This document shows, one piece after another, positions 3,825 to 48,565 of a stretch of DNA of 54,416 nucleotides. Origin of the DNA: a virus. Numbering within the stretch: the stretch's first letter is position 1; each line of letters opens with the position of its first letter. The DNA lies in IMG/VR virus record IMGVR_UViG_3300025080_000036, positions 1-54,416 of that record; one strand, given 5' to 3'. The translations under genes were made by a program, and so were the position numbers. The notes beneath the pieces are model-generated. The model made no database searches and was not told where the DNA came from. It saw only the letters and a list, made by a program, of their open reading frames with translations.

Positions 3825-4099
3825 AAACCCTCCCGCGAAGTATATTCTCCGCCCTCTTCCTCTAACCCCGAATTCCATGGCCCGTAGCGTCAGAAAGTTC
3901 TCGGAGATTGTCCGCACAGCCTGCTTGGTGAAGCCTTCCGCTAACTCGGCTTTGTTAGATTCGGATATTACACTACAAATACAGCTTGCCGTTGTGCCGC
4001 ATTATCGTGGTTACGTGCTAGTCGGATACCTCGTCAAACTTGTAATCCTCGTAGGCGGCGGGGAACGTCAGGCATCAGTCGATGAGGTCTTGGGGCGGG

Positions 4100-4741: not shown

Positions 4742-4752
4742 TACGACCTCAT

Positions 4753-5189
4753 TTACTTTAGGATTACGCTTCTGTATGTGGTCTCAACCGTGTCTGCGCA
4801 CTTCGACACGTCTGCTTTAATGTCGCTTTCCCAAATCCTTAACACAATCCAACCGTCACGTACCAAACGAGCGGTATGCTCTTTATCACGACTCATGTTG
4901 CCGAGGATTTTGTCGCGCCAGTACTGCGTTTATCGTTTTAACTCATCCTCTAAAGAAGCCTGCCCTCGTATAGCCCAGAGTTGTGCCCGTGCCAGAAGTC
5001 ACCATCACAGAAGACCACTATTTTCGCTCTTGTAAATACGATGTCCGGCTTACCGGGGAGCGATTTCACATTTACCTTGTAGCGCAATCCGCGCGACCAT
5101 AACGCGCGTCGGGGCGCAAGTTCTGGTCTGGTGTTTTTGGACTTCACGGCGGACATTATCTTGTGGGTAATTTCCGGTGTCCGTGCCAT
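4753..5189 (-). pseudogene. vsr: Broken Vsr-type T:G mismatch endonuclease
   Basis: The first half reads as a normal very-short-patch-repair endonuclease: MSAVKSKNT, LPGKPDIVF and FWHGHN. Directly after FWHGHN the frame is lost by a +2/-1 indel. The expected continuation, beginning WAIRGQASLEDELKR, is in another frame, and there a TAA stands where family members usually have tyrosine before QYWRDKILGN. The rest, including WIVLRIWESDI, is intact down to the stop at 4753. There are thus at least two independent lesions. Vsr nicks next to T in T:G mismatches made by deamination of 5-methylcytosine. The start at 5189 is chosen because MARTPEITHKIM matches the family; upstream in-frame methionines overlap the neighbour. 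Confidence 0.85.
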
Positions 5190-5208
5190 AAGCTCACCTC
5201 TAAACCTG

Positions 5209-5790
5209 TCAATCGTTGCAGAATATAGCTTGAACACCAACCGTCGCGAGAGCGGTAGTTATATGTTTCTTATCAGCAATGGTTAGACTGTTGCTTGTGA
5301 CGACAAGGTGCAAACAAATCGCAGGAGTTTGTCCGTTAATCGTGAGACCCGGTTCGCGCGCTATAAGTTGCAACGCTTTTCTCAAAGCGGTTTCCCATTT
5401 TAGAACGGTGCCGCCGCTAACGACGAATATTCTCCCATCGTTAGAACATGACACGGAAACCCTCGCGTCTTTGCCAGTACATTGTTGTATTACAGATGAT
5501 TCAGTGCCGTATATCTGCTGAATGGTATCAGTAGGCGATACGCCTTCAAGTGCGTTCCTCGTGACCCGCTTTGCATAAGCATTAAGTATTGCGTCCTTAA
5601 TATACGTGCGAACATTTTCTTTCGGCATATATTCACGCAGCACACCTCCAATCTCGGACTCTTCGACCAATGAGTCCAAGAACTGGTTGTTTTCCGTACG
5701 GTTGCGCGTACTATAACCAAAATCATCTGCTCTGGAGTATACAAGTGCTTTTACCTGCACCGCTTTTTTGTTTGGAAGTTTTTTCGCCAT
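5209..5790 (-). CDS. Unknown protein of the MORC-type restriction operon
   Basis: A 193-residue protein I cannot assign to a family. It has no signal peptide or membrane segment. The N-terminus is basic (MAKKLPNKKAVQVKALVYSR), the middle is polar, and the C-terminal third looks like alternating strands and helices around ICLHLVVTSNSLTIADKKH. It starts 1 base after the helicase-nuclease stop and ends 19 bases before vsr, so it is almost certainly co-translated with the restriction genes. A role as specificity, regulatory or accessory subunit of that system is inferred from position only. Confidence 0.7.
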   Translation of the reverse strand: MAKKLPNKKAVQVKALVYSRADDFGYSTRNRTENNQFLDSLVEESEIGGVLREYMPKENVRTYIKDAILNAYAKRVTRNALEGVSPTDTIQQIYGTESSVIQQCTGKDARVSVSCSNDGRIFVVSGGTVLKWETALRKALQLIAREPGLTINGQTPAICLHLVVTSNSLTIADKKHITTALATVGVQAIFCND

Positions 5791-5791
5791 A

Positions 5792-7450
5792 TCAAAATCC
5801 CTCCGGAAATTTCAGCTTGGTTTCATCGTCCGAATCGCCCAAGTTCGCAACATCCTCAAGCCATACGTTGACGAAACTCTCCATTCTCGCGTCAGAGAAT
5901 GATACAAAGCCTTCCTGAAGGTAAACGACCTCGTTTTCTACGCCTTTGGCTTTTCCCTCCCTGTTCATTTCAATCATATCCGCCATACGGCGAATGTCCG
6001 AAACGAAGTCCAGTACGATGACCTTCTCCTTACCCTCCGATAGCCGCAACCCGCGTCCAAGTTGCTGAACGAAAATCCGACGCGAGTGAGTTGCCCGCAG
6101 AAACACAAGGATGTTGACGTCAGGTATGTCTATACCTTCGTTCATCACATCGACGGCACTAACCGCTTGGTATGTTCCTGCAGCAAACGCAAGCAACCGC
6201 CTTCGTCGCTCGGCTTTGTCCACCCTTGATAAGGCGGCGCAAGGTATTCCTGACGCCGATAGCATATCTGCGAAGCGATTACTGTGTTCAATAGAGGGCG
6301 AAAATATCGCTATCCTCGGATTTGGAATGTCCTTAACAACCCGACGAATCTCAGAGATTACCGCTTCGTCGCGTTGTGGCAGGAACAACCTCTTATTGAG
6401 GTCTCGAATTGAGAGATTTTGCCTGCTCATCCTCTCCATATTGTTCCAGTCCACGTTGTCGCACAGAATGCGGTAATCTACCTTTGAAAGGTAGCCCATT
6501 GCCATGCCATCAACAAGCGACACCTTTTCCAGAGCCTCTCCGAACACCGTTGTAAGACTTTGCCCGTCACCACGCCAAGGTGTGGCGGTCATTCCGATTA
6601 ATAACTTCGGCTTAAGGTGTTCAAGGCAAGTGCGAAAACCGTGCGCGAGGGCGTGATGCGCTTCATCGACTATCACGACATCGAACTGGTCTGGTTCAAT
6701 CCCCGAAAGATACCCATAAAGGCTTTGGTAAAGCCCAAAGGAGATGCCCTCGGTGTCACGCGGCGGCAAGCCGTCAAAGAACACCGAAGTCGGCACCTCC
6801 TTTTTTATTTGCGGCCAGAACCCTTGCTCTAACTGTAGAGCCAAGTCGGTAGCGTGGCACAAGACAAGTATCCGTCGGCATCCCTTCTCCCAGAGTTCAC
6901 GAGCGATTGTCGCCGCGATTACAGTCTTGCCAAGCCCTGTGGCGACGATATAGAAGGCTCGCTTATCGCCTCGTTCATAAACCGCGAGAACCTTTTGGAC
7001 AATTTTATCTTGATACTGGCGTAAGCCTCGCCGACCGGCATGGTCATCCATCATCTGATTTATGAGGGCTTGAATAAACGCGCCGTTCCATAGTTTCAGG
7101 GTGTACCCGTTTTTCTCAAGCTGCTCCTGTCGCTGACGAGCGGTTTTGGTAAACTCCCCGTTAGTGGCAACAGCGGCAATGTTAGCGTCATAGTATGACA
7201 AAGCGTCAATTGCTTCTTTCAAGGCTTGGGGGCCAATATATCGGTCACCGGAAACAGCCTTTGCCTGAACAACCCAAGACCTCACTTGCTGGGCTTCCGG
7301 GTGAGTGGCGAGAATATCGCACCCTTTGTCTCCGGCACCGCCGATGACAGTAGTGTCGTTCCAACCCAAATGCCCCATCAGTCTGGCGACTGCTCGTTCA
7401 AGCCCCTTCCAGTTATAACCGTTTGATATATCATCGGTATAAAAATTCAT
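5792..7450 (-). CDS. Mrr-type nuclease fused to superfamily 2 helicase
   Basis: A 552-residue fusion. Residues about 1-130 look like a restriction endonuclease of the Mrr class: GLERAVARLM, then GAGDKGCDI (39-46) and QAK (62-64), which together make a PD-(D/E)XK active site with a QxK variant. The rest is a DEAD/DEAH-type helicase: Walker A ATGLGKT (170-176), DEAH (262-265), MTATPWR (about 288-294) and the arginine-finger motif QQLGRGLRL. It overlaps the GHKL ATPase by 4 bases. In MORC/MutL-associated restriction operons such a helicase is a usual partner, so this is probably the translocating and cutting component (family knowledge plus inference). Confidence 0.85.
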   Translation of the reverse strand: MNFYTDDISNGYNWKGLERAVARLMGHLGWNDTTVIGGAGDKGCDILATHPEAQQVRSWVVQAKAVSGDRYIGPQALKEAIDALSYYDANIAAVATNGEFTKTARQRQEQLEKNGYTLKLWNGAFIQALINQMMDDHAGRRGLRQYQDKIVQKVLAVYERGDKRAFYIVATGLGKTVIAATIARELWEKGCRRILVLCHATDLALQLEQGFWPQIKKEVPTSVFFDGLPPRDTEGISFGLYQSLYGYLSGIEPDQFDVVIVDEAHHALAHGFRTCLEHLKPKLLIGMTATPWRGDGQSLTTVFGEALEKVSLVDGMAMGYLSKVDYRILCDNVDWNNMERMSRQNLSIRDLNKRLFLPQRDEAVISEIRRVVKDIPNPRIAIFSPSIEHSNRFADMLSASGIPCAALSRVDKAERRRRLLAFAAGTYQAVSAVDVMNEGIDIPDVNILVFLRATHSRRIFVQQLGRGLRLSEGKEKVIVLDFVSDIRRMADMIEMNREGKAKGVENEVVYLQEGFVSFSDARMESFVNVWLEDVANLGDSDDETKLKFPEGF

Positions 7451-9852
7451 GCGTTCAACTCCTTAAGCAAGAAGTCCACGCTTAACGACGCGCGAGCGAG
7501 CTCGTTTTTCTGAACACGCTGACTATAGCCAGATATAACCCGAAGAGCGTCCTTTATGAAGGAAAGGGTGCGGTCTTTGGACTCATCACGGGCGCGTTGG
7601 GTCGCTTTTTCGTCTTGCAGATTGATAGCCGTATAAGGCGTTTGAAGAACTTTTCCATCAAAAACATCCTCGGGGAATCGTTCAATCAGCCTATACAGCG
7701 CTTTGGGCGGCACAAAATCTATCGCGTCATACCCCGCCGCCATACCCGATTGAAACGCAGTAAGCAAGGCGGTATTTGATTGGATGAGATTTGTTATGGT
7801 TTCCTCGACCTCACCAGCCGACTCATGGATACAGTTAACCGCCTCAGCGGCTCGGTCTTTAAGAGCCACATTCAGTCTCTCACGTAGCAGTTCGAAAGCG
7901 CTACTCGCTCTGTCCTGAAGCGATTGTCTATCGATTTTCGCTTCTTGCATAGTCGTTTCCACAAGTTCTGCGTAAACTGATACCAAGTCGGGAAGGCTGT
8001 CGCGAGCCTTAAGTTTCTCAGACAGATACTGCAACAGCAACATCTTAGCAGTTATCGGGTATTGCGCGAGTACCGGATGAGACGGATCGTAAACAAAGTC
8101 GCAATCGATACCATCAGACTGGAAGAAACACGATCTTTTATTACCACGATAATAAATCGCCCCACGGTTCAACTCGTACACACGGACGTTTAGTGAGCCT
8201 GTATTACCGAACCTATAGTTCCGTCCGCTCAACTGGCTAACAGGTGCAGCCCGTTGGATAAGTTCATCCAATTTCGATGTTTCAGGCGCGGCCGGAGCTG
8301 GGGCTGGTTGCGGTGGCGCAACAGGCGGCGCACTGGGTTGCGAACCGCTTGATGAGGTCTGTGGGTCATTCACGGTTTGCGGCGGCGGCGAAATCGCGCC
8401 GCTAATGTATGCCCCAATATCGTCAGACGGTGTTTCGCCCGTATTTACAGCGGTAGTTGCACTCGCTCCTCCCGTACTTTGCTTCTGGTCTTCTTCTTGC
8501 GCGGCTTTCCACCACAAGATATCATCGAGATAGTCGCGCATTCCTTTTTTGAATTCAGCTGCGTATCTCTTCGCAACATCGTTAGGCGCGAATAGGCACT
8601 TTGTGCCTTTATCAACCCGTCGGTAAGCGTTAGCAAGCACACCAAGCGGGGAGGTGTTCTGCTCCGAGAATCCGAGTGCCTTCCTCGATTTGGGGAGGAA
8701 GGGACCCACACCGCAGATGGCTTCCACGGTCTGCGCCCAAGAATTGTCCGCGCGGTCGAAGTCGCTCTTTTGGTAGGTCGGGAGCAAGTAGTCGACATTT
8801 AACTCACCGATGATACGACCGCCGACCGTAGTGCCAAGTTCAAGTGGGTATTGGAGTTCTTTTTGCCCTGTTATAGGGTTCTCGTATTGGAACAGCGACT
8901 TATCAGAGATAAGAATCTTACGACCATTCCTGATGAAGTCGATGCCGAAATCATTGGGGTCAGCGTACCTTTGGATGCCAAGCCAACCCGTAAGCCTCTT
9001 GCCGCGCTCGACGATGTGCGCCGGCAGCGCGTGCCCCTCTTGCTGACCGACGTAATATTCCTCGGCCTCATCGGCGTTCAGGTAGCAATTGCGGGAAAGG
9101 TCAAAGAGGGCATCTCCGAGGTTTCTGTCTATTGTCACATAGGCGGAGACATTCTGGTCGTTATGGCGCACATAGCGCGACTCAGACCAACGGCAGTGGT
9201 TGCGCGGGCGCAGCGGTCTGCCCTTAACGGTTATAGTAATTTCCTGATTGTTTAAAAGCGGCGCATACACAGCTTCAAGCCGTTGCCGTATATCATTTTC
9301 TTTGTTCGGAAGCTCAGAAAGTATGCCTTGGCGTAGCCGCGAGATAGTTATCCTGGTGCCATGCTCTTGCGGGTCGGCTTTCCGCTTACGGATGACCGGC
9401 GCGTCAAACCGCTTGGTATCAATCAGCTTCTGGAAGTCTATCTTGATACCAACCCAGTCGGCGTCGCCGCTTCGCGTTGACATTATAGTAGTTACCTCAC
9501 CCAGTCGCGCGGTTGAAATGTTAAACCCCATACCGAAAAGCCCCAAGTTACCTATTGGGTCGTTGCTTGAATAGCCCGCCCGCACAGCGTTCTGTAATTG
9601 GTCGATGCCCATACCGCAAGCGTTGTCAGTAACTTCAATGGTGCGGTCGACGGCGGCAACGGAGTCAGAAGCCCAAGTCACAGTGATACGCCGCTCAACT
9701 TCTTCTGGCGTAGCGGTCTTGTCCGAAAGGAATGCGTCAATGGAGTTGTCAATCAATTCAGCGACGCATTGCCATGTTTGAAATGGTATTTCGCCCAGTG
9801 TCCGCAAGATTCGCGGAGTCGGCGTGATGTCCAATGTGTTCATATTACTCAT
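7447..9852 (-). CDS. MORC/MutL-like GHKL ATPase of a restriction operon
   Basis: An 801-residue protein with the Bergerat-fold ATPase signatures: N box ELIDNSIDAF (32-41), DNACGMG (76-82) and the lid GLFGMGFN (104-111). Residues up to about 400 resemble the GHKL plus transducer half of MutL/MORC/Hsp90-like proteins. A Pro/Ala/Ser-rich linker follows near residues 505-535, then a helical C-terminal region of unknown fold. Prokaryotic relatives of MORC ATPases are known in operons with cytosine methyltransferase, SF2 helicase and Vsr (described by Iyer, Abhiman and Aravind), the same set as here. They are thought to dimerise on ATP binding and clamp DNA. The start overlaps the methyltransferase end; an ATG at 9843 is an alternative. 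Confidence 0.85.
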   Translation of the reverse strand: MSNMNTLDITPTPRILRTLGEIPFQTWQCVAELIDNSIDAFLSDKTATPEEVERRITVTWASDSVAAVDRTIEVTDNACGMGIDQLQNAVRAGYSSNDPIGNLGLFGMGFNISTARLGEVTTIMSTRSGDADWVGIKIDFQKLIDTKRFDAPVIRKRKADPQEHGTRITISRLRQGILSELPNKENDIRQRLEAVYAPLLNNQEITITVKGRPLRPRNHCRWSESRYVRHNDQNVSAYVTIDRNLGDALFDLSRNCYLNADEAEEYYVGQQEGHALPAHIVERGKRLTGWLGIQRYADPNDFGIDFIRNGRKILISDKSLFQYENPITGQKELQYPLELGTTVGGRIIGELNVDYLLPTYQKSDFDRADNSWAQTVEAICGVGPFLPKSRKALGFSEQNTSPLGVLANAYRRVDKGTKCLFAPNDVAKRYAAEFKKGMRDYLDDILWWKAAQEEDQKQSTGGASATTAVNTGETPSDDIGAYISGAISPPPQTVNDPQTSSSGSQPSAPPVAPPQPAPAPAAPETSKLDELIQRAAPVSQLSGRNYRFGNTGSLNVRVYELNRGAIYYRGNKRSCFFQSDGIDCDFVYDPSHPVLAQYPITAKMLLLQYLSEKLKARDSLPDLVSVYAELVETTMQEAKIDRQSLQDRASSAFELLRERLNVALKDRAAEAVNCIHESAGEVEETITNLIQSNTALLTAFQSGMAAGYDAIDFVPPKALYRLIERFPEDVFDGKVLQTPYTAINLQDEKATQRARDESKDRTLSFIKDALRVISGYSQRVQKNELARASLSVDFLLKELNA

Positions 9853-10837
9853 CCTTTTGCACCTCTTTCACAGTTTCCAAATAGTCCGCTATGGTTTTTG
9901 CCACTACATATGCGAGCATCGGCGGCACAGCGTTTCCTATTTGGGAGACGCTCGCTGTCTTCGCGTGGGTGAACTTGAAGTCGTCCGGGAATGTCTGTAT
10001 TCTCGCGCACTCACGAACAGTTAGCCGTCGTTCCAAAGAATAATGGAACTGGACACGCGACTTGGGGTTCGCTCGAATCGTGTATGCGGGTAAGTCTTTC
10101 TTGTTGCTCTCGTCACCTTGCCCGTTACCTTTCTTTGCGCGTGAAGCCCCAAAATACTGACTTTGGTTTGGCACACTCTCATCGGTTACATTTATTAAAT
10201 CATCGATTGCCCACTCAATACTTCGGTGCTTTCCAACAAACTGAGGCACGGGCATCACTGGAAAACCGTGGCTTTCATGAATGTCGTTCCTCACGCAGAC
10301 GAAAAACAGCCTTGTGCGTCTCTGCGGAACTCCGTAGTCTGGAGCGAACATTTTCCAGATCTCGACCTTGTAACCAACGTTGGCGAGGTCAGTTTTTATG
10401 GTTTTCAAAACCTCACCGTTCTCCATACGCTCAAGGTTGATGACGTTTTCGCCAATTACGACGGCGGGACGATGCTTGTTCATATATATGATAAGCGTCT
10501 GATACAGACGCCCCCGTTCAGATTCCAGCCCGCCTAATGGTCCGCAAGAGGAAAACTCCTGACAAGGGAACCCACCAATCAGAACCTCCGCTTTCGGTAT
10601 GAAATCCACGTCTACTGTTGAGAGGTCTTTGACAAATGCGTGTCCCTCCCCGAAGTACTCGTTATAAGTTTCGACGCAGCGTGGCTCATAGTCGTAAGCC
10701 GCCGTGATGGAAAATGGCAATCGCTCGTAGTCTTCATCGTGGTATCTAAAGTCACCGCGGAAGCCCAAATCCAGACCGCCACATCCGCAAAAGTACGAAA
10801 CCACGGAATATGACGGTTTCTGTTTGTTCGCAGCCAT
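9845..10837 (-). CDS. DNA cytosine-5 methyltransferase (intact)
   Basis: A 330-residue C5 methyltransferase with a full motif set: motif I YFCGCGGLDLG (15-25), catalytic PCQ (91-93, cysteine 92), ENV (130-132), motif VIII VPQRRTRLFF, motif IX RECARIQTFPDDF and motif X QIGNAVPPM. It transfers methyl groups from S-adenosylmethionine to carbon 5 of cytosine; the target-recognition region is short and the target site cannot be read. Context makes it the protective methylase of the GHKL/helicase restriction system. It lies 15 bases after a broken second methyltransferase and overlaps the GHKL gene, so it may now be the only source of modification. Confidence 0.95.
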   Translation of the reverse strand: MAANKQKPSYSVVSYFCGCGGLDLGFRGDFRYHDEDYERLPFSITAAYDYEPRCVETYNEYFGEGHAFVKDLSTVDVDFIPKAEVLIGGFPCQEFSSCGPLGGLESERGRLYQTLIIYMNKHRPAVVIGENVINLERMENGEVLKTIKTDLANVGYKVEIWKMFAPDYGVPQRRTRLFFVCVRNDIHESHGFPVMPVPQFVGKHRSIEWAIDDLINVTDESVPNQSQYFGASRAKKGNGQGDESNKKDLPAYTIRANPKSRVQFHYSLERRLTVRECARIQTFPDDFKFTHAKTASVSQIGNAVPPMLAYVVAKTIADYLETVKEVQKDE

Positions 10838-10852
10838 ACTGATGCCTCCCTT

Positions 10853-11411
10853 TCATAATTTGATTTGTTTCATTGTTTCACATATCTTTCTTGCGCGTTC
10901 AAGGAAACTCTCTCGGATGTGCTTCCACTTCTCCAGTATGCCGAGTGCCTTGACATTCTCCATAATGAATACTTGCGGTTGTATCCATTCGACTGCATCA
11001 AGATAAATCCAAATCAACTGACTGCGTTCATCGTCTGGGTTCATTTTGCCAGCTACGGAGAAGCCCTGACAGGGCGGCCCCCCGAAAACAATGTCCGGCA
11101 TCGCCAATGGAGAATGTATCCATATATTCGTTGATGTCGCCCCTCAACAGCTTCGTGTTAGGATGGTTTGCGGCATAAGTATCACAAGCATAAGGCATCA
11201 ATTCATTGGACACTACTACCTCAATCCCAGCACGGGCAAAACCAAAATCCATGCCTCCTGCACCCGTAAAAAGCGAAATCCCTCTAAGCTACTTGGATGG
11301 ACTCACAAAAGGCACAACGTGCCCATGAGCCTTGTTGTCAGCCTCATTTTTATCTGTAAAGTCCCACAGCGCCATCTGCTGTGTAACTTGTGCGTTCTTA
11401 GCCAATGCCAT
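10853..11411 (-). pseudogene. Broken and truncated second cytosine-5 methyltransferase
   Basis: Starting at the ATG at 11411 (MALAKNAQ, after a GAGG site), the frame reaches a TAG at 11289-11291 and then continues as a perfect motif I (ISLFTGAGGMDFGF). A one-base frameshift near 11095-11105 separates this from motif IV (GGPPCQGFSVAGK) and motif VI (FIMENVKAL). The reading ends at 10853 after about 85 more codons, without motifs VIII-X or a target-recognition domain. Nonsense codon, frameshift and C-terminal loss together mark it as inactive. It lies between the XRE regulator and the intact methyltransferase, so the operon once had a pair of methylases or an acquired duplicate. Confidence 0.85.
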
Positions 11412-11421
11412 TAGCGTTACC

Positions 11422-11643
11422 TCACTTCTTCTCGTTTTCATCCTCACGCGAGAGTTCCATAATCTCGTGCAACTCGCAGTCAAGGGCTTTGCATATTTTT
11501 ACAAGCACATCAGTCGTGATGTTCTCACCCTTACCCAACTTGGCGATAGAGGCGGTACTGATGCCTGTCGCCCTCTTTAAGTCCTGCTTGTTCATCTTCT
11601 TATCAAGCATTAAATGCCAAAGTCTATTATAGCTGATAATCAC
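11422..11643 (-). CDS. XRE-family regulator, C-protein-like
   Basis: A 73-residue Cro/C1-type helix-turn-helix protein (YNRLWHLMLDKKMNKQDLK, then a recognition region STASIAKLGKG). It starts with GTG after AAGGAGG. It is the first gene of the restriction operon, 10 bases before the methyltransferase remnant, the usual place of restriction-controller (C) proteins that time expression of the nuclease after modification. The likely operator is the palindrome at 11728-11746. Autoregulation is inferred. Confidence 0.8.
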   Translation of the reverse strand: MIISYNRLWHLMLDKKMNKQDLKRATGISTASIAKLGKGENITTDVLVKICKALDCELHEIMELSREDENEKK

Positions 11644-11683
11644 CGTAAAGCCTCCTTACTTCTGTACGCTCACGAACTTGAGT

Positions 11684-11712
11684 AGTATAACAAGGCCAGC
11701 TGCAAGTTTCAA
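11684..11712 (-). promoter_or_regulatory. Sigma-A-type promoter of the restriction operon
   Basis: On the minus strand TTGAAA (11712-11707), a 17-base spacer and TATACT (11689-11684) form a near-consensus promoter about 40 bases upstream of the regulator start. It reads into the XRE gene and probably the whole run down to Gabija, since no terminator is visible before the hairpin at 176-204. Confidence 0.7.
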
Positions 11713-11727
11713 TACAATATTTGCGAT

Positions 11728-11746
11728 TGTAAACGATATGTTTACA
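11728..11746. promoter_or_regulatory. 19-bp palindrome, likely operator
   Basis: TGTAAAC and GTTTACA flank a 5-base GATAT centre, giving perfect 7-bp arms. The site lies 15 bases upstream of the -35 box of the restriction promoter and 11 bases past the end of the DUF3732 gene. That is an activator-type position and suits binding by the adjacent XRE protein (inference). Confidence 0.6.
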
Positions 11747-11757
11747 TTAGCGCTGCA

Positions 11758-13545
11758 TCAATGCACATCGTGCAAGAAGCCATGCCTGCCCACGCTTTTA
11801 CCCTTGGTGAAGTAATGAACGGTCGCCCCTCCTCTTTCGTAGTCCAAACTGGGTATCTCATTTTCGATGATGATGATCTGCCCATCCTTCTGGTTATCAA
11901 GCAGATATTGAAACAGGGCGGTTCTCATGCTTTCGGGCGCTTTATCGTCGACTCCCTGCTTCAAAGGCAGGGTTGGGGAATCCACCAAAAGTAGTCCAGG
12001 CGTGTATGTTCCATTCTCTGCGAGGTATCTCCTTATGACGAGTGCGAGTGCAGTGTTCAAAAATGCCCGATAACCTTTGCCACTGGTGGTCGCTTTCCTT
12101 CTGCCGTTAATGGCTACATCAAATGTCTCCAAAAGGAACTGCGCAGTGAGAAGCCCCTCGTATTTGCAATTCGTCAGGACTTCCATAAGGTATTTATCAA
12201 CTGTTTCCAAGAATTCACCGCCAAAGTAGTTTTTAGGCTTGAATTTCATCTCGGTCTCGTCCTCGGTTTGCATATCACGAAGTTCGGTAGTTCGCTCACT
12301 TGCAAATCGCTCGATAATATCCATTTCGTTCCGAAGTCGTATGACTGCGCGGTAGTCAGTCAGCATCTGCGTGAACTCTTGTGCTTTTGGCTTTAACCGA
12401 TTGTTGATCAATGTTTCCACATCAGACTTCTTAGCGGTCAAAGCCGCTATTTCCACCTCAATCTCCTTGCGCTCGCGGAGTATGTCCTGTTCCGCCTCGC
12501 TCAAGCCATCGAACTGCGACAGTATCCGGGCAAGTTCCGCTTGTGAAGCCTCGATATAGGATGCATGGCCGTGTTCAGGAATTTCCCCGTCGCAGAACGG
12601 GCATATGTCCAAATGCGGAACAGCGTCCAAATTTGACTCGCCATCCACGATGAAGCTAAGGCGCTTGATATCGGCAGTGTATTGACTGCGAAGCGACTGG
12701 TAGCGGTTGTACAGGAGATTACACTCTGCGAGTCGCTCCCTTACAGATAGAATCTCGCTCAAAAGCAGACGGCTCCGCTCGACCTCCGTTGAGATGCGCT
12801 CCTCGGTTTCGGCAAGGGCGTCAACAATGCCTTGAACCGTGACTTCGATGTCTATCGTTTCAATGGTGGCAAGGGTTTCATTTAATTTGTCTCTTTGCTC
12901 GGCTAAGTCCGACAGTTCTTTATTAATGTACTTTTCAACTGCCTTTTTGCGAGCCTCCTTAATTTTCTTTTCTTCCCGCTCATCGAATTCGGAAAAATCC
13001 TTGTCGGTTATAAGGAACAGGAACGACGACATGAATGCTGTGTTTTCCTGCGGCAACTTGGGCAGTAGAATAGAAGCTTCCTGTGACACGTCTTCTTCCT
13101 TGATGAGGAACATATGCACGAAAGTGCGCCACGTCAGCTTCTTGGTTTTGAAATTCTCGTTCTTTATAATCTGATGCTCTTCCTCAACGCCAATCAGCCT
13201 AAGCCATACCGAGCTGATAATAGGGTCGCCATTTTTGGCGTTGTATTTGCCGGACTCAATGTTCTCATCAGAACTTGAGACGGCTATTTTATTTTCTCCG
13301 ATTTTACGTTCAAGGGTAACCTGACCACTGCGAGTAACGACAACTATCTTCACAGTGGTATAGCCGGTGCTTTCGTCAAAAGGCGGGTTCGAACTCCCAA
13401 ACAGAAAATCCACGCACTTCAATATGCAAGTTTTGCCTGTGTCGGACAATCCGTACACAATATTTAACCCTTCGGTGAATTCCACCGTGGCATCCTTTTT
13501 TTCTTTGCCTGAAGCGGTAACCAGCTTTATGTAATAGTTAGCCAT
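11758..13545 (-). CDS. DUF3732 RecN/SMC-like ATPase of an ABC-3C system
   Basis: A 595-residue ABC-type ATPase. Walker A is GLSDTGKT (32-39). The centre is a long coiled coil interrupted by a hook-like CPFC motif (CPFCDGEIPEHGHASY). The C-terminal ATPase half carries KGYRAFLNTALAL and a Walker B-like LLLVDSPTLPL. This is the DUF3732 architecture of ABC-three-component conflict systems. It starts 4 bases after the middle component. The coiled coil and zinc-hook-like cysteines suggest binding or bridging of DNA, as in RecN/Rad50 (inference). Confidence 0.85.
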   Translation of the reverse strand: MANYYIKLVTASGKEKKDATVEFTEGLNIVYGLSDTGKTCILKCVDFLFGSSNPPFDESTGYTTVKIVVVTRSGQVTLERKIGENKIAVSSSDENIESGKYNAKNGDPIISSVWLRLIGVEEEHQIIKNENFKTKKLTWRTFVHMFLIKEEDVSQEASILLPKLPQENTAFMSSFLFLITDKDFSEFDEREEKKIKEARKKAVEKYINKELSDLAEQRDKLNETLATIETIDIEVTVQGIVDALAETEERISTEVERSRLLLSEILSVRERLAECNLLYNRYQSLRSQYTADIKRLSFIVDGESNLDAVPHLDICPFCDGEIPEHGHASYIEASQAELARILSQFDGLSEAEQDILRERKEIEVEIAALTAKKSDVETLINNRLKPKAQEFTQMLTDYRAVIRLRNEMDIIERFASERTTELRDMQTEDETEMKFKPKNYFGGEFLETVDKYLMEVLTNCKYEGLLTAQFLLETFDVAINGRRKATTSGKGYRAFLNTALALVIRRYLAENGTYTPGLLLVDSPTLPLKQGVDDKAPESMRTALFQYLLDNQKDGQIIIIENEIPSLDYERGGATVHYFTKGKSVGRHGFLHDVH

Positions 13546-13549
13546 TCAG

Positions 13550-13999
13550 TCATCCCCTTTGTAAAGACGCAATCGAGAGCCTATTAATCAACGCGAGGAC
13601 GTCACGCTCTGATTTGGAGCCGATGAGTTCTTTTGTCGACCTCGCCGAAGCGCAATACTCGTCGGCGTAATCATTATCAAGCCGTGCACGGTAGGTTTTA
13701 CCGCTTTCACTAATACCATATCGAAATCCGTCACGCCGCTTGGAAACGGTGGTCAATCCGTCCAGTACAAGTAGTTTTATAGCTTTCTGCACCAGTTCGC
13801 GCCGTGCCGCAAACTCGCTGAAATTGAAGAAGTTATCTCCGTTCAGGTTTTCATCGGCGACTCCGAAGGAACGCCCATACACAGCGATGAAGTCGACGGC
13901 GGCAATCATATCGGCGGTCATCGTCCGCTTGTCATCCACCGAAAGCATAAGCAGGATGCGTAGAGATATTTCAAAAGAGGTATTAAACACGTTCTCCAT
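13550..13999 (-). CDS. ABC-3C middle component
   Basis: A 149-residue protein. The start at 13999 makes an ATGA overlap with the upstream stop and gives MENVFNTSFEISLRILLMLS, a typical start for ABC-three-component middle subunits. The body resembles a winged-helix fold (ELVQKAIKLLVLDGLTTV followed by a YGISESGKTYRARL hairpin). It sits between the C-terminal-domain effector and the DUF3732 ATPase and probably links them. Biochemical function is unknown. Confidence 0.75.
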   Translation of the reverse strand: MENVFNTSFEISLRILLMLSVDDKRTMTADMIAAVDFIAVYGRSFGVADENLNGDNFFNFSEFAARRELVQKAIKLLVLDGLTTVSKRRDGFRYGISESGKTYRARLDNDYADEYCASARSTKELIGSKSERDVLALINRLSIASLQRG

Positions 14000-14982
14000 C
14001 ACAGCATCACCCACCTTATCTTCCCGTCGTTTACGAGCATATGGCACACGCCCTTTTTCTCACTGTTACCTATCCAGTTCGGGATATTGCTCAGAAGCGA
14101 TTTGCTGACGGGTACCACAACAGCCTGTTTCAGCACCTCAATCAAGCGGGCGTAGCCGTGGTCAAAGTTTTGGTCACAGGTGGTGGACACGCCGTCGTAC
14201 ATATCCTCTTTCAGAATCCCAAACTGGTCGCCGCCTTCGTCAGCGAACACCTCTCTAACCGAACGTCGTATGCTCTCGGCGTTATAGTAGTTTTTCCGTT
14301 GTTCCTCAAAATTGCGCTGATACCTTGGATAGCTGGACAGCGTATCCCTCGATATGCTCACTTTTTTCTCGGCATCCGTGTAGGCGACGAAAAGTTCGGT
14401 GACATAGCCTTGCTCGTGCGGCTCGATATCAGCAGGCGGTATCAGCTTCGCAGGGAGTTTGATTATGCTGCCGCCGATGTGGATTTTCCCATCTTTTACA
14501 TAGACTGTCGCCAACGGGACTTGCGGCAACCGCACATTATCAAATTGAGGCACAAGTTCCTCGGCTATTTCAATGTTTGTCTTGGCTACGTTTTGCCTTG
14601 TGCCGTTGGCGCACTCAGTCAGCAAATCTGCAAAGATTTTGGCGCACTGGGCGGCGGCTTCATATTTTTTCGATACCTTGTAACCTTTACTTGTGAGAGC
14701 CGTCTGCAACCCACTGGTTGCATCATCCGACAAGTCGGACATATATGCCTCGAACTTAGCTTTATCCATATGGCCAACAACAAAGGCTGCATCTTTGCGT
14801 GGCAGTGGCTTCGAGCCATTATAAATCCTCGTGAGGTAATCGGCCTTCTTGTCCAGAAGGGCACATCGTTCATCAGCATCGTCCTCGATGATGTTGCCAA
14901 TCAACGACACGACAAGGTCGGATTGATATTTACCATCCCCACAAAAGGGATACAGCATCTGTGCGAATTCACTGAATATCAC
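13999..14982 (-). CDS. ABC-3C C-terminal-domain protein
   Basis: A protein of about 328 residues. The conserved ABC-3C C-terminal domain is recognisable in the last third: FEEQRKNYYNAESIRRSVRE, FGILKEDMYDGV, WIGNSEKKGVCHMLVNDGKI. The N-terminal two thirds are the variable part, where effectors of this class usually differ; I see no known catalytic motif there. I place the start at the GTG at 14982, preceded by AGGGGG; a TTG at 15006 extends the frame by 8 codons but lacks a binding site. It is the first gene of the three-gene cassette. Confidence 0.75.
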   Translation of the reverse strand: MIFSEFAQMLYPFCGDGKYQSDLVVSLIGNIIEDDADERCALLDKKADYLTRIYNGSKPLPRKDAAFVVGHMDKAKFEAYMSDLSDDATSGLQTALTSKGYKVSKKYEAAAQCAKIFADLLTECANGTRQNVAKTNIEIAEELVPQFDNVRLPQVPLATVYVKDGKIHIGGSIIKLPAKLIPPADIEPHEQGYVTELFVAYTDAEKKVSISRDTLSSYPRYQRNFEEQRKNYYNAESIRRSVREVFADEGGDQFGILKEDMYDGVSTTCDQNFDHGYARLIEVLKQAVVVPVSKSLLSNIPNWIGNSEKKGVCHMLVNDGKIRWVML

Positions 14983-15205
14983 CTTACACGCCCCCTGTCC
15001 AAGCAAAAGTCCGGCTAAGTCCGTTTCGGTACGGTTTAGTACGGAGTTGAGACAAGCCAGTTTTGTAGAATGAGATTGTAGTCAGGAAGCCACTCTCAAC
15101 TTATTCATTATTCTATCACTAATGTTCGTGATGGTCAATGAAATGTTTGCGAAAGCAATAGCCTCTTTTGGATTACAAATCATCAGCAGGAAGGAGGGAA
15201 TTCCA
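14983..15205. other. Junction between defence island and prophage genes
   Basis: A divergent region of about 220 bases between the ABC-3C operon and the first rightward phage gene. It must hold promoters for at least one side, but I find no convincing -35/-10 pair. A short TACGG repeat occurs around 15030-15043 (GGTACGGTTTAGTACGG). No recognisable attachment site is visible. Confidence 0.4.
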
Positions 15206-37189: not shown

Positions 37190-38371
37190 ATGAGTAAAAT
37201 CCTTGAACTACGCGAAAAACGCAACAAAATCTGGAACACCGCCAAGGAGTTCCTCAACCAGAAGCGCGGCGCGGACGGGCTTGTCCCCGCTGAAGCCGCA
37301 GCAGAATACGACAAAATGGAAGCCGACATGGTCGCCCTCGGCAAGGAAATCGAGCGTCTGGAACGCCAGTCGGCCTATGACCTTGAGATGGGCAAGCCGA
37401 CATCCGCTCCCATTTTGGGTGCGCCGACCAAGTCCACCGAAGCCAAGACAGGCAGGGCTACCAATGAGTACAAGGCGGACTTCGGCAATATCCTGCGTGG
37501 GAAACTACCCGTTAACAACGTTTTGAGCACGTCCCCCGACACCGACGGCGGCTATCTCGTGCCGATGGAATTCGAGCGGCAGATTATCATGGGGCTTCGG
37601 GAAGCCAACGTCATCCGCTCCATAGCCAAGACCATCACGACCTCGGCGGAGCGTAAAATCCCCATTGCCACAACACACTCCACCGCACAGTGGACTGCCG
37701 AGAACGCCGCTTACACTGAAAGCAACCCAACCTTCGCACAGAAGACGATCGATGCTTTCAAGCTGACCGATCTTGTGAAAGTCAGCACCGAGTTGTTGCA
37801 GGATTCCATGTTCGACCTCGAAAGCTACATCGCGGCTGAGTTCGCCAGAGCGTTCGGCGTCGCCGAGGAAGAAGCATTCTGTGTCGGCACCGGCACGGGT
37901 CAGCCTACAGGGATTTTTACCGCAAGCGGCGGCACGGTCGGTGTGACGGCGGGTTCTGCTACGGCAATCACCGTCGACAACATCATCGACCTCATTTACG
38001 CTCTGAAAAGCCCGTACCGCAGAAATGCCGTATTCCTCATGAAAGACGTGACAGTGTCCACGCTCAGGAAACTGAAGGATAGCAACGGCGCTTATCTCTG
38101 GCAGCCCTCCGTACAGGCGGGTCAGCCCGACAGGCTTCTTGGCTATCCCATTTACACTTCCCCTTACGCGCCTGCTGCGGCGGCTTCGGCTCTGCCTATA
38201 GCTTTCGGCGACTTCTCCAACTACTGGATTGCCGACCGCTTGGGAAGAACGGTGCAAAGGCTCAATGAACTTTACGCCGGAAACGGTCAGGTAGGCTTCA
38301 TCGCCACCGAGCGCGTGGATGGGAAAGTCATCCTATCTGAGGGCATACAGCTTCTTCAGATGGGTTCGTAG
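37190..38371 (+). CDS. HK97-fold major capsid protein
   Basis: A 393-residue major capsid protein. Residues 1-65 are a coiled-coil delta-like region (ELREKRNKIWNTAKEFLNQ), likely removed by the protease next door. The mature part has the HK97 hallmarks: DGGYLVPMEFERQIIMGL, TVSTLRKLKDSNGAYLWQP, LLGYPIYTSPYAPA, AFGDFSNYWIADRLG. It starts after AAACGGAGG. Confidence 0.96.
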   Translation: MSKILELREKRNKIWNTAKEFLNQKRGADGLVPAEAAAEYDKMEADMVALGKEIERLERQSAYDLEMGKPTSAPILGAPTKSTEAKTGRATNEYKADFGNILRGKLPVNNVLSTSPDTDGGYLVPMEFERQIIMGLREANVIRSIAKTITTSAERKIPIATTHSTAQWTAENAAYTESNPTFAQKTIDAFKLTDLVKVSTELLQDSMFDLESYIAAEFARAFGVAEEEAFCVGTGTGQPTGIFTASGGTVGVTAGSATAITVDNIIDLIYALKSPYRRNAVFLMKDVTVSTLRKLKDSNGAYLWQPSVQAGQPDRLLGYPIYTSPYAPAAAASALPIAFGDFSNYWIADRLGRTVQRLNELYAGNGQVGFIATERVDGKVILSEGIQLLQMGS

Positions 38372-38387
38372 TGGGAGGTGGGCGGCG

Positions 38388-38705
38388 ATGACGCCAATGG
38401 AATTATTGCCAAAAGTCAAAGAAAACCTGATACTTGCACACGGCGAGGATGACGGTCTGCTCCTGCGGCTCATCACCGCCGCCGTGAGCTATGCCGAAAG
38501 CTATCAGCATATCTCGGAGGGTTTTTATACAGAGAACCCTATGCCTCCAACCACCGAGCAGGCGATCATCATGCTGTCGAGCCATTTCTACGAAAGCAGG
38601 GATGGCTCGACGGCTGGCTTTTTCGCCGACAGCGTTCAGGCGGGTCAGCAGGTTTGGAACACGGTCAACACCCTATTGCGCCTTGACAGATTGTGGGGGG
38701 TTTGA
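38388..38705 (+). CDS. Head-tail connector (gp6-like)
   Basis: A 105-residue helical protein (LPKVKENLILAHGEDDGLLL, then TEQAIIMLSSHFYESRDGST) with the size and place of HK97 gp6-like DNA-packaging/connector proteins directly after the capsid gene. It extends the portal ring. The ATG at 38388 follows GGGAGGTGGGCGGCG. The next genes are inserted in the opposite direction. Confidence 0.85.
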   Translation: MTPMELLPKVKENLILAHGEDDGLLLRLITAAVSYAESYQHISEGFYTENPMPPTTEQAIIMLSSHFYESRDGSTAGFFADSVQAGQQVWNTVNTLLRLDRLWGV

Positions 38706-38708
38706 CCG

Positions 38709-38996
38709 TCACGAACGAAGCCAAGCATCGTTAAAGCGTATACGAAACTCTTCAAGGACTTCCTCAAATCGTGCAAATCCTTCTTCACGCATACGGTGTG
38801 CAAAACCGATACTACGCTCCGTGCCAATGACCGCCGACCAAAAATACTGTACCATCCCGGCGGCATCACGTTGGCTCATTCGGGTAATCGTAAGATTCAC
38901 ACCGCTTTTGAGTTCTTTGGAAGCAGTAGGAGAATTCAGGACAGGGTCAAAAACGTGTTGATGGAGAAACGCCAGCAATTCTTGTTCTTTAGTCAT
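38709..38996 (-). CDS. Moron gene 2, unknown function
   Basis: A 95-residue cytoplasmic-looking protein: LLAFLHQHVFDPVLNS, SGVNLTITRMSQRDAAGMVQ, FEEVLEEFRIRFNDAWLRS. No family with known function is recognised; helices seem to dominate. It starts one base after the stop of moron gene 1, with GAGGGG in place, so the two are translationally coupled. It is on the strand opposite to all phage genes and ends convergently 3 bases from the connector stop. Lysogenic expression and a role in superinfection exclusion, defence or host benefit are inferred from context only. Confidence 0.7.
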   Translation of the reverse strand: MTKEQELLAFLHQHVFDPVLNSPTASKELKSGVNLTITRMSQRDAAGMVQYFWSAVIGTERSIGFAHRMREEGFARFEEVLEEFRIRFNDAWLRS

Positions 38997-38997
38997 A

Positions 38998-39435
38998 TTA
39001 CCCCTCGCTTTCAGAGGATGGAATTATTTCCTCAACTCGCTTGACGATTTTCATGCTCCTTGGAGCAAGCACGTCAAAGCGGTACGTTGAGGCAGACTGA
39101 AACTTAGTTGCGTTGATGCTTTTAGGTAAGTCTTTCTGTTTCCACACTGTGTACCCGAAAGGCTCAAGTATGGTCTTAATCATCAGCCCTACTGCTTGCT
39201 TGGTAAAGTTGTCGTCCAGAGAATTATCATGCGACTTGTTTGGGTCGGCGAAAAAATGCTCGACATTGACGGCAACAGGTGCAAGAGCAGGTTTACCTGC
39301 TTCGCTCGCGTCTATCATCTGAACGATGATGAAGTCCTGCGAGAGGAAACCAAAAATATTCTGCATATCGTCGTCGTTTTCGAACTTGCGGCAGTTTGGG
39401 TTTTGAGTGATGAAATCGTTATAGGTAGCTAACAT
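38998..39435 (-). CDS. Moron gene 1, unknown function
   Basis: A 145-residue protein starting at an ATG 39435 (AAAGGAG upstream; a GTG at 39444 is possible). Recognisable blocks are QNIFGFLSQDFIIVQMID, SLDDNFTKQAVGLMIKTILE and FGYTVWKQKDLPKS, followed by a strand-rich tail. I do not know a function. It is the first gene of the two-gene minus-strand cassette, reads from its own promoter at 39475-39503 and is visibly more AT-rich than the head genes around it, a sign of separate origin. Confidence 0.75.
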   Translation of the reverse strand: MLATYNDFITQNPNCRKFENDDDMQNIFGFLSQDFIIVQMIDASEAGKPALAPVAVNVEHFFADPNKSHDNSLDDNFTKQAVGLMIKTILEPFGYTVWKQKDLPKSINATKFQSASTYRFDVLAPRSMKIVKRVEEIIPSSESEG

Positions 39436-39474
39436 AATGGACACTCCTTTTGTGTTAAGTTGTTTTACTTATGT

Positions 39475-39503
39475 ATAATAACATATCTGAAATCAGTTGT
39501 CTA
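39475..39503 (-). promoter_or_regulatory. Promoter of the moron cassette
   Basis: On the minus strand TAGACA (39503-39498), a 17-base spacer and TATTAT (39480-39475) form a good sigma-A-type promoter, about 40 bases before the moron 1 start. It is independent of phage late transcription, as expected for a gene expressed in the lysogen. Confidence 0.65.
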
Positions 39504-39537
39504 TATGTTTAGGAAAAAATTCGGAGGTGTCCGCCTT

Positions 39538-39873
39538 ATGGCATTCGGGAAAATGAACACGTTTGTAAACATCGTCACCACTTCCCCGACCAAGGATGTC
39601 GAGGGTTTTGTCAAAAAGGGCGACACCGTACTTGCTTCCGTCCGTGCATATAAAGAGGAAAAACACGGTACGGAGCGTTGGGCAAACATGGCGGCGTTTT
39701 CCGAAGCAACCGCCCTGTTCCGCTTCCGCAAATTGCCGGGGCTTGCCGTTGACACGACACTTATCATCACCTGCGACACAGGCAGATACCGCATTATTTC
39801 TGCGGAGGATGTCAAAGGTCGCGGAATGTATATCGAGTGCCTTTGCGAGAAACTCAAAAGGAGCGTGAAGTGA
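39538..39873 (+). CDS. Phage head-tail adaptor
   Basis: A 111-residue protein starting at the ATG after TCGGAGGTGTCCGCCTT. It has the beta-rich profile of head-closure/adaptor proteins (KMNTFVNIVTTSPTKDVEGF, ATALFRFRKLPGLAVDTTLI, GRYRIISAEDVKGRGMYI). It resumes the head operon after the inserted moron. Confidence 0.85.
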   Translation: MAFGKMNTFVNIVTTSPTKDVEGFVKKGDTVLASVRAYKEEKHGTERWANMAAFSEATALFRFRKLPGLAVDTTLIITCDTGRYRIISAEDVKGRGMYIECLCEKLKRSVK

Positions 39874-40310
39874 TGGCAAAAGTTGAATTAACACTCCCCA
39901 CCGACTTTGAAGAACGGCTCTCCCGCCTTGGCGACAAGACGGATGAAATCATCCCCAAGGTGCTGGAAGCGGGCGGCGAAGTCGTGCTTGCCAAGGCGAA
40001 AAGCAACCTCTCCTCCGTGGTCGGGCGGGGCACGAAAGTAAAGAGCCGCTCCACAGGCGAGTTGGAAAACTCCCTCGGCCTGTCGAAAGCACGGCAAAAG
40101 CGGGACGGCTCCGGCTGGGACGTTAAGGTCGGTTTCGCCGAACCCCGGCGCGGTAAAGGCGACTCTAATGCCAAAATCGCAAACATCATCGAATACGGGC
40201 GACATGGGCGACCGGCGAAGCCTTTTATGAAGCCCGCCCGAACCCAGTCGAAAAACGCCGCTGTTGAAGCGATGAAAGAGAAATTCGAGCAGGAGGTTGA
40301 GCACATATGA
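39873..40310 (+). CDS. HK97 gp10-like tail-head joining protein
   Basis: A 145-residue protein of the HK97 gp10 family: EVVLAKAKSNLSSVV, GELENSLGLSKAR, ANIIEYGRHGRPAKPFMKPA. Placed between adaptor and tail terminator as usual. It overlaps both neighbours by a few bases. Confidence 0.88.
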   Translation: MAKVELTLPTDFEERLSRLGDKTDEIIPKVLEAGGEVVLAKAKSNLSSVVGRGTKVKSRSTGELENSLGLSKARQKRDGSGWDVKVGFAEPRRGKGDSNAKIANIIEYGRHGRPAKPFMKPARTQSKNAAVEAMKEKFEQEVEHI

Positions 40311-40648
40311 GCATTTTACAAGAACTGAACACGCTGCTCTCTTCCATTCTGCCTGTGGAAACGGGCATATTCAGCAGCGTTGCGCCCGACGAGTATCTTG
40401 TCCTCACGCCGATGACGGACACCTTCGCCTTGTTCGGCGACAACACGCCGCTCATCGATGTGTCCGAGGTGCGCATATCCCTGTTTTCAAAGGGCAATTA
40501 CATCAAACGGAAGTATCAGATTACCGCCGCCCTGCTTGGGGCGGCGTTCACCATAACAGACCGCCGGTATATTGGTCACGAGGACGATACCGGCTACCAC
40601 CACTTCGCTTTAGATGCGGCAAAAGAATATGAAACGGAGGAAAATTAA
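40307..40648 (+). CDS. Probable tail terminator/completion protein
   Basis: A 113-residue protein with a mixed fold (LNTLLSSILPVETGIFSSVA, VRISLFSKGNYIKRKYQI, YIGHEDDTGYHHFALD). The position between gp10 and the major tail protein is that of tail terminator proteins, which cap the tail tube. Assignment is mostly from gene order. Confidence 0.65.
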   Translation: MSILQELNTLLSSILPVETGIFSSVAPDEYLVLTPMTDTFALFGDNTPLIDVSEVRISLFSKGNYIKRKYQITAALLGAAFTITDRRYIGHEDDTGYHHFALDAAKEYETEEN

Positions 40649-47644: not shown

Positions 47645-47839
47645 ATGGCATATTTTCAACAAGTGGCGCGGGACGCTTCGCCCAAAGGCTACGGTAAACT
47701 CCGTTCAATCACTATCCGTCTCGTTATACAGAACTGCACGGGCGAGGTGTTCTTCACCGACCTTATGTTACAGGCGGGCGCCGTTGCAACGGGCTGGGTC
47801 GGTCACGTCTGCGAGATTAAGTGGACGCTGGACGGATAA
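47645..47839 (+). CDS. Small tail protein, paralogue of the 48637 gene
   Basis: A 64-residue protein (ITIRLVIQNCTGEVFFTDLM, LQAGAVATGW) clearly similar to the N-terminus of the protein at 48637. Function unknown; it lies in the tail-tip operon. Confidence 0.65.
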   Translation: MAYFQQVARDASPKGYGKLRSITIRLVIQNCTGEVFFTDLMLQAGAVATGWVGHVCEIKWTLDG

Positions 47840-47868
47840 TCTCACAAAAGTATATTTGTCTTATATAC

Positions 47869-47897
47869 ATGACATTTAGACTTAAATATGATACAAT
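47869..47897 (+). promoter_or_regulatory. Promoter of the XRE/membrane cassette
   Basis: ATGACA (47869-47874), a 17-base spacer and TACAAT (47892-47897) lie 19 bases before the XRE start, a good sigma-A-type match inside the tail operon. Confidence 0.65.
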
Positions 47898-47916
47898 ACT
47901 CTCGGGAGGTGGTTCG

Positions 47917-48129
47917 ATGGGTAAAAATCTACGGATAAAATCAGCACGGGCGGCAAAAGACATGACGCAAAAGGATCTTGCAGATGCTGTCGGAGTCGCT
48001 CGGCAAACAATGAACGCAATCGAAAAAGGCGATTATAACCCTTCGATAAACCTATGCATCGCAATATGCAAGGTTCTGGGAAAAACACTAGACCAACTTT
48101 TCTGGGAGGATGATGGTAATGATGAATAA
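47917..48129 (+). CDS. XRE-family regulator of a membrane-protein cassette
   Basis: A 70-residue Cro/C1-type helix-turn-helix protein (SARAAKDMTQKDLADAVGVA, then RQTMNAIEKGDYNPSINLC). It starts after GGGAGG. The type is usually paired with a small membrane protein, as here. It probably represses its own promoter at 47869. It is not the phage immunity repressor type by context. Confidence 0.85.
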   Translation: MGKNLRIKSARAAKDMTQKDLADAVGVARQTMNAIEKGDYNPSINLCIAICKVLGKTLDQLFWEDDGNDE

Positions 48130-48565
48130 TAAAAATGGGTTAGACGAAATGCAAAGACAACGGCGAAACAGCATAGGCAATCAGATGTTTATGATTATGT
48201 TTTGGGCACTTTTTCTCAATATTGGGCTTTACGGAGCAGGTATAACATGGCTGAAATATCCCACTGATGTAATCATCATCGTGTCAGCGTGTATGTTTGT
48301 TTATCTTGTCAGACTGATTGTTTCAGGTTCCTATTTAGCCGAAAAAGAACAAAAGGGTATAAGCTGGGTAAATCGCCTTACTATGATAATCATGTCGACT
48401 GTTGCAGTTGTAGTGATATCTTTATCTCGTATCTCCGGTACGAATGAACCATGGAGCAATGCTGTTACTATATTTGTGACAGCAGTGGCGGTAGGTTCGA
48501 TAATAGCACTGGTTACGCTTATCGTAAAGAGAGTGCGTAACAAAGACAATGATGATGAACAATAA
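48119..48565 (+). CDS. Four-helix membrane protein (DUF6773-like)
   Basis: A 148-residue protein with four predicted membrane segments (about 20-42, 48-68, 85-103, 113-136) and charged ends (start NNKNGLDEMQRQRRN, end KRVRNKDNDDEQ). It resembles small membrane proteins found next to XRE regulators in Firmicutes; DUF6773 is my best guess. The start (48119 or 48122) overlaps the regulator end. The gene is AT-rich compared with its phage neighbours. Role unknown. Confidence 0.75.
   Translation: MMNNKNGLDEMQRQRRNSIGNQMFMIMFWALFLNIGLYGAGITWLKYPTDVIIIVSACMFVYLVRLIVSGSYLAEKEQKGISWVNRLTMIIMSTVAVVVISLSRISGTNEPWSNAVTIFVTAVAVGSIIALVTLIVKRVRNKDNDDEQ

What the first reader, a model, noticed from the sequence alone, without database searches (positions are those of the whole stretch)
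38706..39537. Two-gene moron with its own promoter inserted in the head operon
Between the head-tail connector and the adaptor, two coupled genes run against all phage genes. They have a good promoter (TAGACA-N17-TATTAT), one base between them, and more AT-rich DNA than their neighbours. Neither protein has a function I can recognise. A lysogen-expressed cassette in a fixed structural gene gap is the classic setting of superinfection exclusion, anti-phage or host-fitness genes. The sequence shows the layout; the role is inference.
Basis: partly seen in the sequence, partly recalled or inferred. Interest (0 to 1): 0.72.

Follow-up and report, generated by a model that had tools for sequence, protein, structure and literature searches.

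The report
Mobile antisense cassette in phage operon
Two small genes of unknown function sit backwards, behind their own promoter, between two head genes of a temperate clostridial phage; about nine in ten sampled relatives lack them, and the leading gene recurs in other phage gene gaps and beside anti-phage genes, so it is probably an optional weapon or shield that still needs testing.

Summary
Two genes, A (145 aa, 39435-38998) and B (95 aa, 38996-38709), fill an 832-bp gap between connector Ad1 and head-closure Hc1, on the opposite strand, one base apart, behind an extended -10 promoter. Both are AT-richer than their neighbours. The insertion is accessory: in 72 of 80 sampled relatives Ad1 and Hc1 lie at most 21 bp apart (mostly 1-4). 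A is the core gene. It occurs alone in the same gap and, also antisense, in the TerL|portal gap of about 15 other phages or prophages; other copies lie beside Fic, a PIN toxin or a type I RM operon. The A+B pair recurs once in a TerL|portal gap. A has dN/dS 0.05-0.11 and dS far below most neighbouring genes, so it is a selected gene that moved recently. Neither protein matches Pfam, PHROGs, NCBIfam, PADLOC or PDB sequences; confident AlphaFold models match no solved fold. I call it a moron-like accessory cassette with new protein families, most likely acting in conflict between mobile elements. Function and lysogenic expression are inferred. No terminator follows B, so one strict moron feature is missing.

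The parts
38706..39537 (.). whole insertion between Ad1 stop and Hc1 start (832 bp)
   Evidence: 72 of 80 relatives have 21 bp or less here; PV036457.1 has a 4-bp overlap of the two genes
38998..39435 (-). gene A, 145 aa, core gene of the cassette
   Evidence: AlphaFold2 pLDDT 91.6
38709..38996 (-). gene B, 95 aa, optional partner, all-helical model
   Evidence: AlphaFold2 pLDDT 88.3
39475..39503 (-). promoter TAGACA-N17-TATTAT with TG before the -10
   Evidence: similar boxes upstream of A in unrelated loci
39444..39450 (-). ribosome-binding site AAAGGAG of gene A
   Evidence: read from sequence
39001..39006 (-). GAGGGG inside the last codons of A, likely ribosome-binding site of B (coupled translation inferred)
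   Evidence: read from sequence
39523..39529 (+). GGAGGTG, ribosome-binding site of Hc1, supplied inside the inserted stretch
   Evidence: read from sequence
38391..38705 (+). Ad1 head-tail connector, upstream flank (likely start by comparison with relatives)
39538..39873 (+). Hc1 head closure/completion protein, downstream flank

Best explanation
The insertion is a moron-like accessory cassette of a temperate clostridial phage. SHOWN from sequence: it sits in a site that is empty in most relatives, carries its own sigma-A-type promoter facing against the head operon, its lead gene is under purifying selection, and it has recently moved between phages and between gaps. INFERRED: the promoter is read in the uninduced lysogen while the head operon is silent, making protein A and, here, also B through coupled translation. 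A then acts in conflict between mobile elements, most likely by blocking a competing phage at a step after entry, in the way the prophage protein Tab does; B is an exchangeable helper. A's molecular target is unknown. Because no antidote gene lies on the head-gene strand of the gap, I expect a target that this phage lacks or carries in an insensitive form.
For: Empty site in 72 of 80 relatives and in PV036457.1. Own promoter and distinct composition, with similar promoters upstream of A elsewhere. Same family, antisense, in the TerL|portal gap of about 15 distinct phages or prophages, with A+B together in L059/L151. dS of A 0.14-0.21 against 1.2-1.7 for portal, capsid and gp10 in the same phages. 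Conflict-gene neighbours: Fic matching PDC-S04/SoFic, PIN toxin, ParE/Phd, Panacea/MqsA-like, type I RM operon, and for B a PDC-S02-like gene and GIY-YIG. The phage is temperate by its serine-recombinase-like gene at 53570-54415 (read by eye). Precedent: Tab, antisense with its own promoter in a late operon (PMC10884400); antisense accessory loci read in lysogens (PMC7067206).
Against: No transcript data. No family or fold match gives a function. No terminator. No Tab-like antidote gene on the late strand. Neighbour association is indirect, since such gaps collect many kinds of cargo.
Confidence: 0.5

Rival explanations
1. Counter-defence cassette: A (and B) are anti-restriction or anti-CRISPR-type proteins that switch off a host or competitor defence system, made on entry or during lysogeny.
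For: Small proteins without known relatives, own promoter, exchangeable partners, and palindromes across the -10 in six other loci resemble the layout of anti-CRISPR loci (general knowledge). One chromosomal copy adjoins a type I RM operon. B keeps company with restriction-like genes.
Against: No helix-turn-helix partner of the Aca kind is in the window cassette. Several solitary copies lie outside phages. The palindrome is not significant in the window (p=0.415).
Confidence: 0.25
2. Addiction or toxin-antitoxin module that stabilises the prophage.
For: Two tightly coupled small genes; the same gaps hold ParE/Phd and other toxin-antitoxin genes; A adjoins PIN and Fic genes.
Against: A and B each occur without the other, which a strict pair would not allow; neither matches a toxin or antitoxin family.
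Confidence: 0.1
3. Host-fitness or regulatory gene unrelated to phage conflict.
For: Distant solitary relatives lie in clostridial chromosomes next to GTPase, transporter or permease-like genes (neighbours named by reading). Morons can change host traits (PMC7067206).
Against: Close relatives lie in phages or beside conflict genes; presence is sporadic (6 of 391, 4 of 67 and 1 of 248 genomes).
Confidence: 0.1
4. The useful product is the antisense transcript: the strong promoter, with no terminator behind B, runs antisense RNA through head genes and keeps them silent in the lysogen.
For: A is antisense in all 15 distinct TerL|portal copies and in all Ad1|Hc1 copies, while other cargo is mostly sense (28 of 33). 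No terminator.
Against: Protein-level purifying selection and the presence of A outside operons show that the protein matters; this can at most be an added effect. Copies share descent, so the orientation bias is not many independent events.
Confidence: 0.05

Closest known systems
Tab / anti-Tab moron of Pseudomonas phage JBD26 (PMC10884400)
   Same: Small protein of no known family, on the minus strand with its own promoter, inserted between two genes of the late operon and absent from close relatives
   Different: No sequence relation looked for or found; different host group and gap; no antidote gene on the late strand here; function of A untested
Antisense prophage accessory loci of Salmonella such as STMMW_20121 of ST64B (PMC7067206)
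   Same: Own promoter, antisense to lytic genes, single small gene
   Different: There lysogenic transcription was measured; here it is inferred
Antiviral hotspots of P2-like phages and P4-like satellites (PMC9122126, abstract only)
   Same: One position in otherwise matching phages that is filled by varied cargo
   Different: Here the gaps lie inside the head operon and most cargo is untested
Anti-CRISPR loci (general knowledge)
   Same: Small orphan proteins in phage structural-gene gaps behind a strong promoter
   Different: No Aca-type regulator in the window; no similarity to a listed family in the searched libraries

Membership tests
Phage moron (accessory insertion) | Extra DNA between two genes that are adjacent in related phages | tested here: met
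   72 of 80 relatives have 21 bp or less; PV036457.1 overlaps by 4 bp
Phage moron (accessory insertion) | Own promoter | tested here: met
   TAGACA-N17-TATTAT with TG, one of four such sites in the window; by sequence only
Phage moron (accessory insertion) | Base composition unlike the flanks | tested here: met
   GC 0.45-0.47 against 0.515-0.571
Phage moron (accessory insertion) | Own intrinsic terminator (strict original sense, from general knowledge) | tested here: not met
   No convincing minus-strand terminator after B; two weak chance-level sites about 1 kb on. Filed as moron-like in the broad sense only
Phage moron (accessory insertion) | Expressed from the uninduced prophage | not testable with these tools
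   No RNA data
Tab/anti-Tab | Antidote gene on the late strand beside the effector | tested here: not met
   No plus-strand gene with support lies in 38706-39537
Tab/anti-Tab | Blocks virion assembly of a competitor | not testable with these tools
   Needs plating and microscopy
Known defence system | Match to a described defence protein family | tested here: not met
   No PADLOC hit for A or B
Type II toxin-antitoxin pair | Fixed co-occurrence of the two genes | tested here: not met
   A without B and B without A
Anti-CRISPR locus | Partner Aca helix-turn-helix gene in the operon | tested here: not met
   B matches no HTH family; its model is all helix with no PDB match
Anti-CRISPR locus | Inhibits a CRISPR-Cas system | not testable with these tools
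   Needs an assay

The most novel reading that the evidence does not exclude
A is the effector of an undescribed family of prophage-carried anti-phage (or anti-defence) proteins with a new fold, carried as a one-gene or A+B cassette that moves between several gaps of the structural operon, nearly always against late transcription and, in part of the family, behind a palindrome-regulated promoter.
Probability: 0.35. Interest if true: 0.7.

Novelty: new member of a known kind. Interest (0 to 1): 0.5.

Why it matters
It defines two protein families absent from the searched libraries and shows the lead one being traded among clostridial prophages in positions where resident phages keep exclusion or defence genes. 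It also maps two cargo gaps (TerL|portal, about half filled in the sample; Ad1|Hc1, about one in ten filled) that can be mined for new anti-phage and counter-defence genes, and offers a small, directly testable effector.

Tried and rejected
Known-family search of A and B: nothing in Pfam, PHROGs, NCBIfam or PADLOC, nor for the 24-member A family (best hits E 0.005-0.4, each in only one or two members). Solved structures by sequence: best E 0.5-2. Foldseek with confident models: nothing below E 0.3. Annotated phage records by tblastn: none for A or B; plasmids: none for A. A as a head component: rejected, since about 90% of relatives lack it. A and B as a fixed pair: rejected. Operator in the window: palindrome not significant (p=0.415), so claimed only for six other loci. 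Rfam: no RNA element at 38000-40500. A prediction of the A-B complex could not be run with the tool as offered. Literature searches for a described TerL|portal cargo gap in clostridial phages gave no direct match among the titles and abstracts listed.

Full report
WHAT IS THERE. The gap 38706-39537 separates the head-tail connector (Phage_connect_1, phrog_40 Ad1) from the head-completion protein (Phage_HCP, phrog_25 Hc1). It holds two minus-strand genes. A is 145 aa, 39435-38998, with ATG and AAAGGAG. B is 95 aa, 38996-38709, one base after A, with GAGGGG in A's last codons. TAGACA-N17-TATTAT with TG before the -10 lies 40 bases upstream of A; only four sites of this strength exist in the window. 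GC and GC3 are lower than in the neighbours. No convincing terminator follows B on its strand.

IT IS ACCESSORY. I fetched 80 viral contigs with a related Hc1 and measured the distance to Ad1. In 72 it is -4 to +21 bp, mostly 1-4. Eight are larger: L063-L065 hold A alone (the contigs of L005-L007), L128 (contig of L010) holds A plus an unrelated 132-aa gene, L086 an antisense DUF1413 gene, L070 a PAPS-reductase-domain gene, and L091 and L130 hold 107 bases without a gene of note. The sample is the best-matching 80, so the fraction is for close relatives only. The named phage PV036457.1 (Ca. Heliusvirales) has Ad1 and Hc1 overlapping by 4 bp.

IT MOVES. A was found in further viral and bacterial contigs. 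In L025-L027, L038, L043, L044 and L144-L156 it sits antisense in the TerL|portal gap, convergent with TerL. In L039 a distant relative sits in the sense direction between the g15-like gene and the tape-measure gene. Phages with A at TerL|portal have a closed Ad1|Hc1 gap where measured (L026, L050, L145-L148), and phages with A at Ad1|Hc1 have TerL and portal overlapping by 4 bp where measured (L005-L007; window). L059/L151 carries A and B together in the same order in the TerL|portal gap, so the pair can travel as a unit, although A is usually without B. On a tree of 36 A proteins the Ad1|Hc1 label needs at least three changes and is mixed with Fic- and PIN-linked copies. Against L005-L007, A differs at dS 0.14-0.21 while portal, capsid and gp10 differ at dS 1.2-1.7. 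The adjacent Hc1 has dS 0.23-0.46, so the exchanged tract runs from near A's 3' end through Hc1 to about 39940, at the start of gp10. L003 shows a second tract that covers A and B. dN/dS of A is 0.05-0.11, so the protein is selected.

PARTNERS AND GAP CARGO. A precedes a Fic protein in three MAG contigs, with overlapping frames in L022; the Fic of L023 matches PADLOC PDC-S04 and SoFic. It precedes a small gene and a PIN-domain gene in L021. It lies beside a type I RM operon in Acetobacterium wieringae. The TerL|portal gap with A also holds ParE/Phd (L038) or a Panacea/MqsA-like gene (L153). B lies next to a gene matching PDC-S02 candidate defence proteins, in some loci with a GIY-YIG nuclease. 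Of 75 TerL|portal gaps measured among 80 contigs chosen by portal similarity, 36 exceed 150 bp and hold diverse cargo. Non-A cargo there is mostly sense (28 of 33), whereas A is antisense in all 15 distinct copies (p=1.4e-8). Copies share descent, so this p value overstates independence.

PROTEINS. A: AlphaFold2 on 24 family members gives pLDDT 91.6 and pTM 0.85, six helices followed by two strands. B: pLDDT 88.3, all helix. Foldseek found no match below E 0.3 for A (PDB and viral models) or below E 1 for B (PDB only). Searches of Pfam, PHROGs, NCBIfam, PADLOC and PDB sequences gave nothing significant.

PROMOTER. Upstream regions of A share TTGACA-like and TGTTATAAT-like boxes in widely different loci. 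Six loci have long inverted repeats near the -10 (for example TTTTACATATGT-TATATT-ACATATGTAAAA; none of 200 shuffles as good), but the window does not (p=0.415). Regulation by a repressor is therefore a lead only.

MECHANISM. Shown: optional insertion, own promoter sequence, selection, mobility, conflict-gene neighbours. Inferred: the promoter is active in the lysogen, A is the effector, it interferes with a competing phage, and B assists. Precedents are Tab, which is antisense with its own promoter in a late operon and blocks virion assembly (PMC10884400), and an antisense accessory locus read from its own promoter in a Salmonella prophage (PMC7067206). Unlike Tab, no antidote gene sits on the late strand. 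Counter-defence is the main rival.

VERDICT. A real, optional, mobile cassette with new protein families; a moron in the broad sense, lacking the terminator of the strict sense; function unproven.

Noticed in passing
window 236-15006: A 14.8-kb run of minus-strand defence genes beside the phage genes: Gabija GajA/GajB (E 1e-211 and 1e-214), HhH-GPD and Vsr, an Mrr_cat-ResIII helicase, a HATPase (MORC-like) gene, a C5 methyltransferase, and an ABC-3C set (AAA_23, MC2, CTD6). Whether it is phage cargo or flanking host DNA was not settled.
   Followed up: partly
window 47821-48565: A possible second accessory cassette: an HTH_3 gene and a DUF6773-like membrane protein between tail genes, sense, with one of the four best promoters of the window at 47869.
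   Followed up: partly
window 53570-54415: A serine-recombinase-like gene cut by the contig end, which supports a temperate phage (read by eye).
   Followed up: no
L162-L241, TerL-portal gap: About half of the measured gaps carry diverse cargo (DUF1413, PAPS-reductase-like, toxin-antitoxin-like, GIY-YIG-like, HNH-like and unknown genes): a cargo gap worth mining.
   Followed up: partly
L025, L026, L038, L059, L028, L043, upstream of A: Long inverted repeats near the -10 of A's promoter, not matched in 200 shuffles each; a candidate operator for an unknown repressor.
   Followed up: partly
L046, L047, L057, L060, L062: A gene matching PADLOC PDC-S02 followed by B and, in most, a GIY-YIG gene in the TerL|portal gap: a possible undescribed restriction-like module in which B is a constant part.
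   Followed up: partly
window 38573-38614: A 17-pair stem followed by TTTTT on the plus strand inside the coding part of Ad1; chance or a late-operon attenuator.
   Followed up: no
L003 and L004: Head genes in these contigs appear only in pieces (portal and capsid) while A and B are intact: a decaying prophage that kept the cassette, or an assembly artefact.
   Followed up: no
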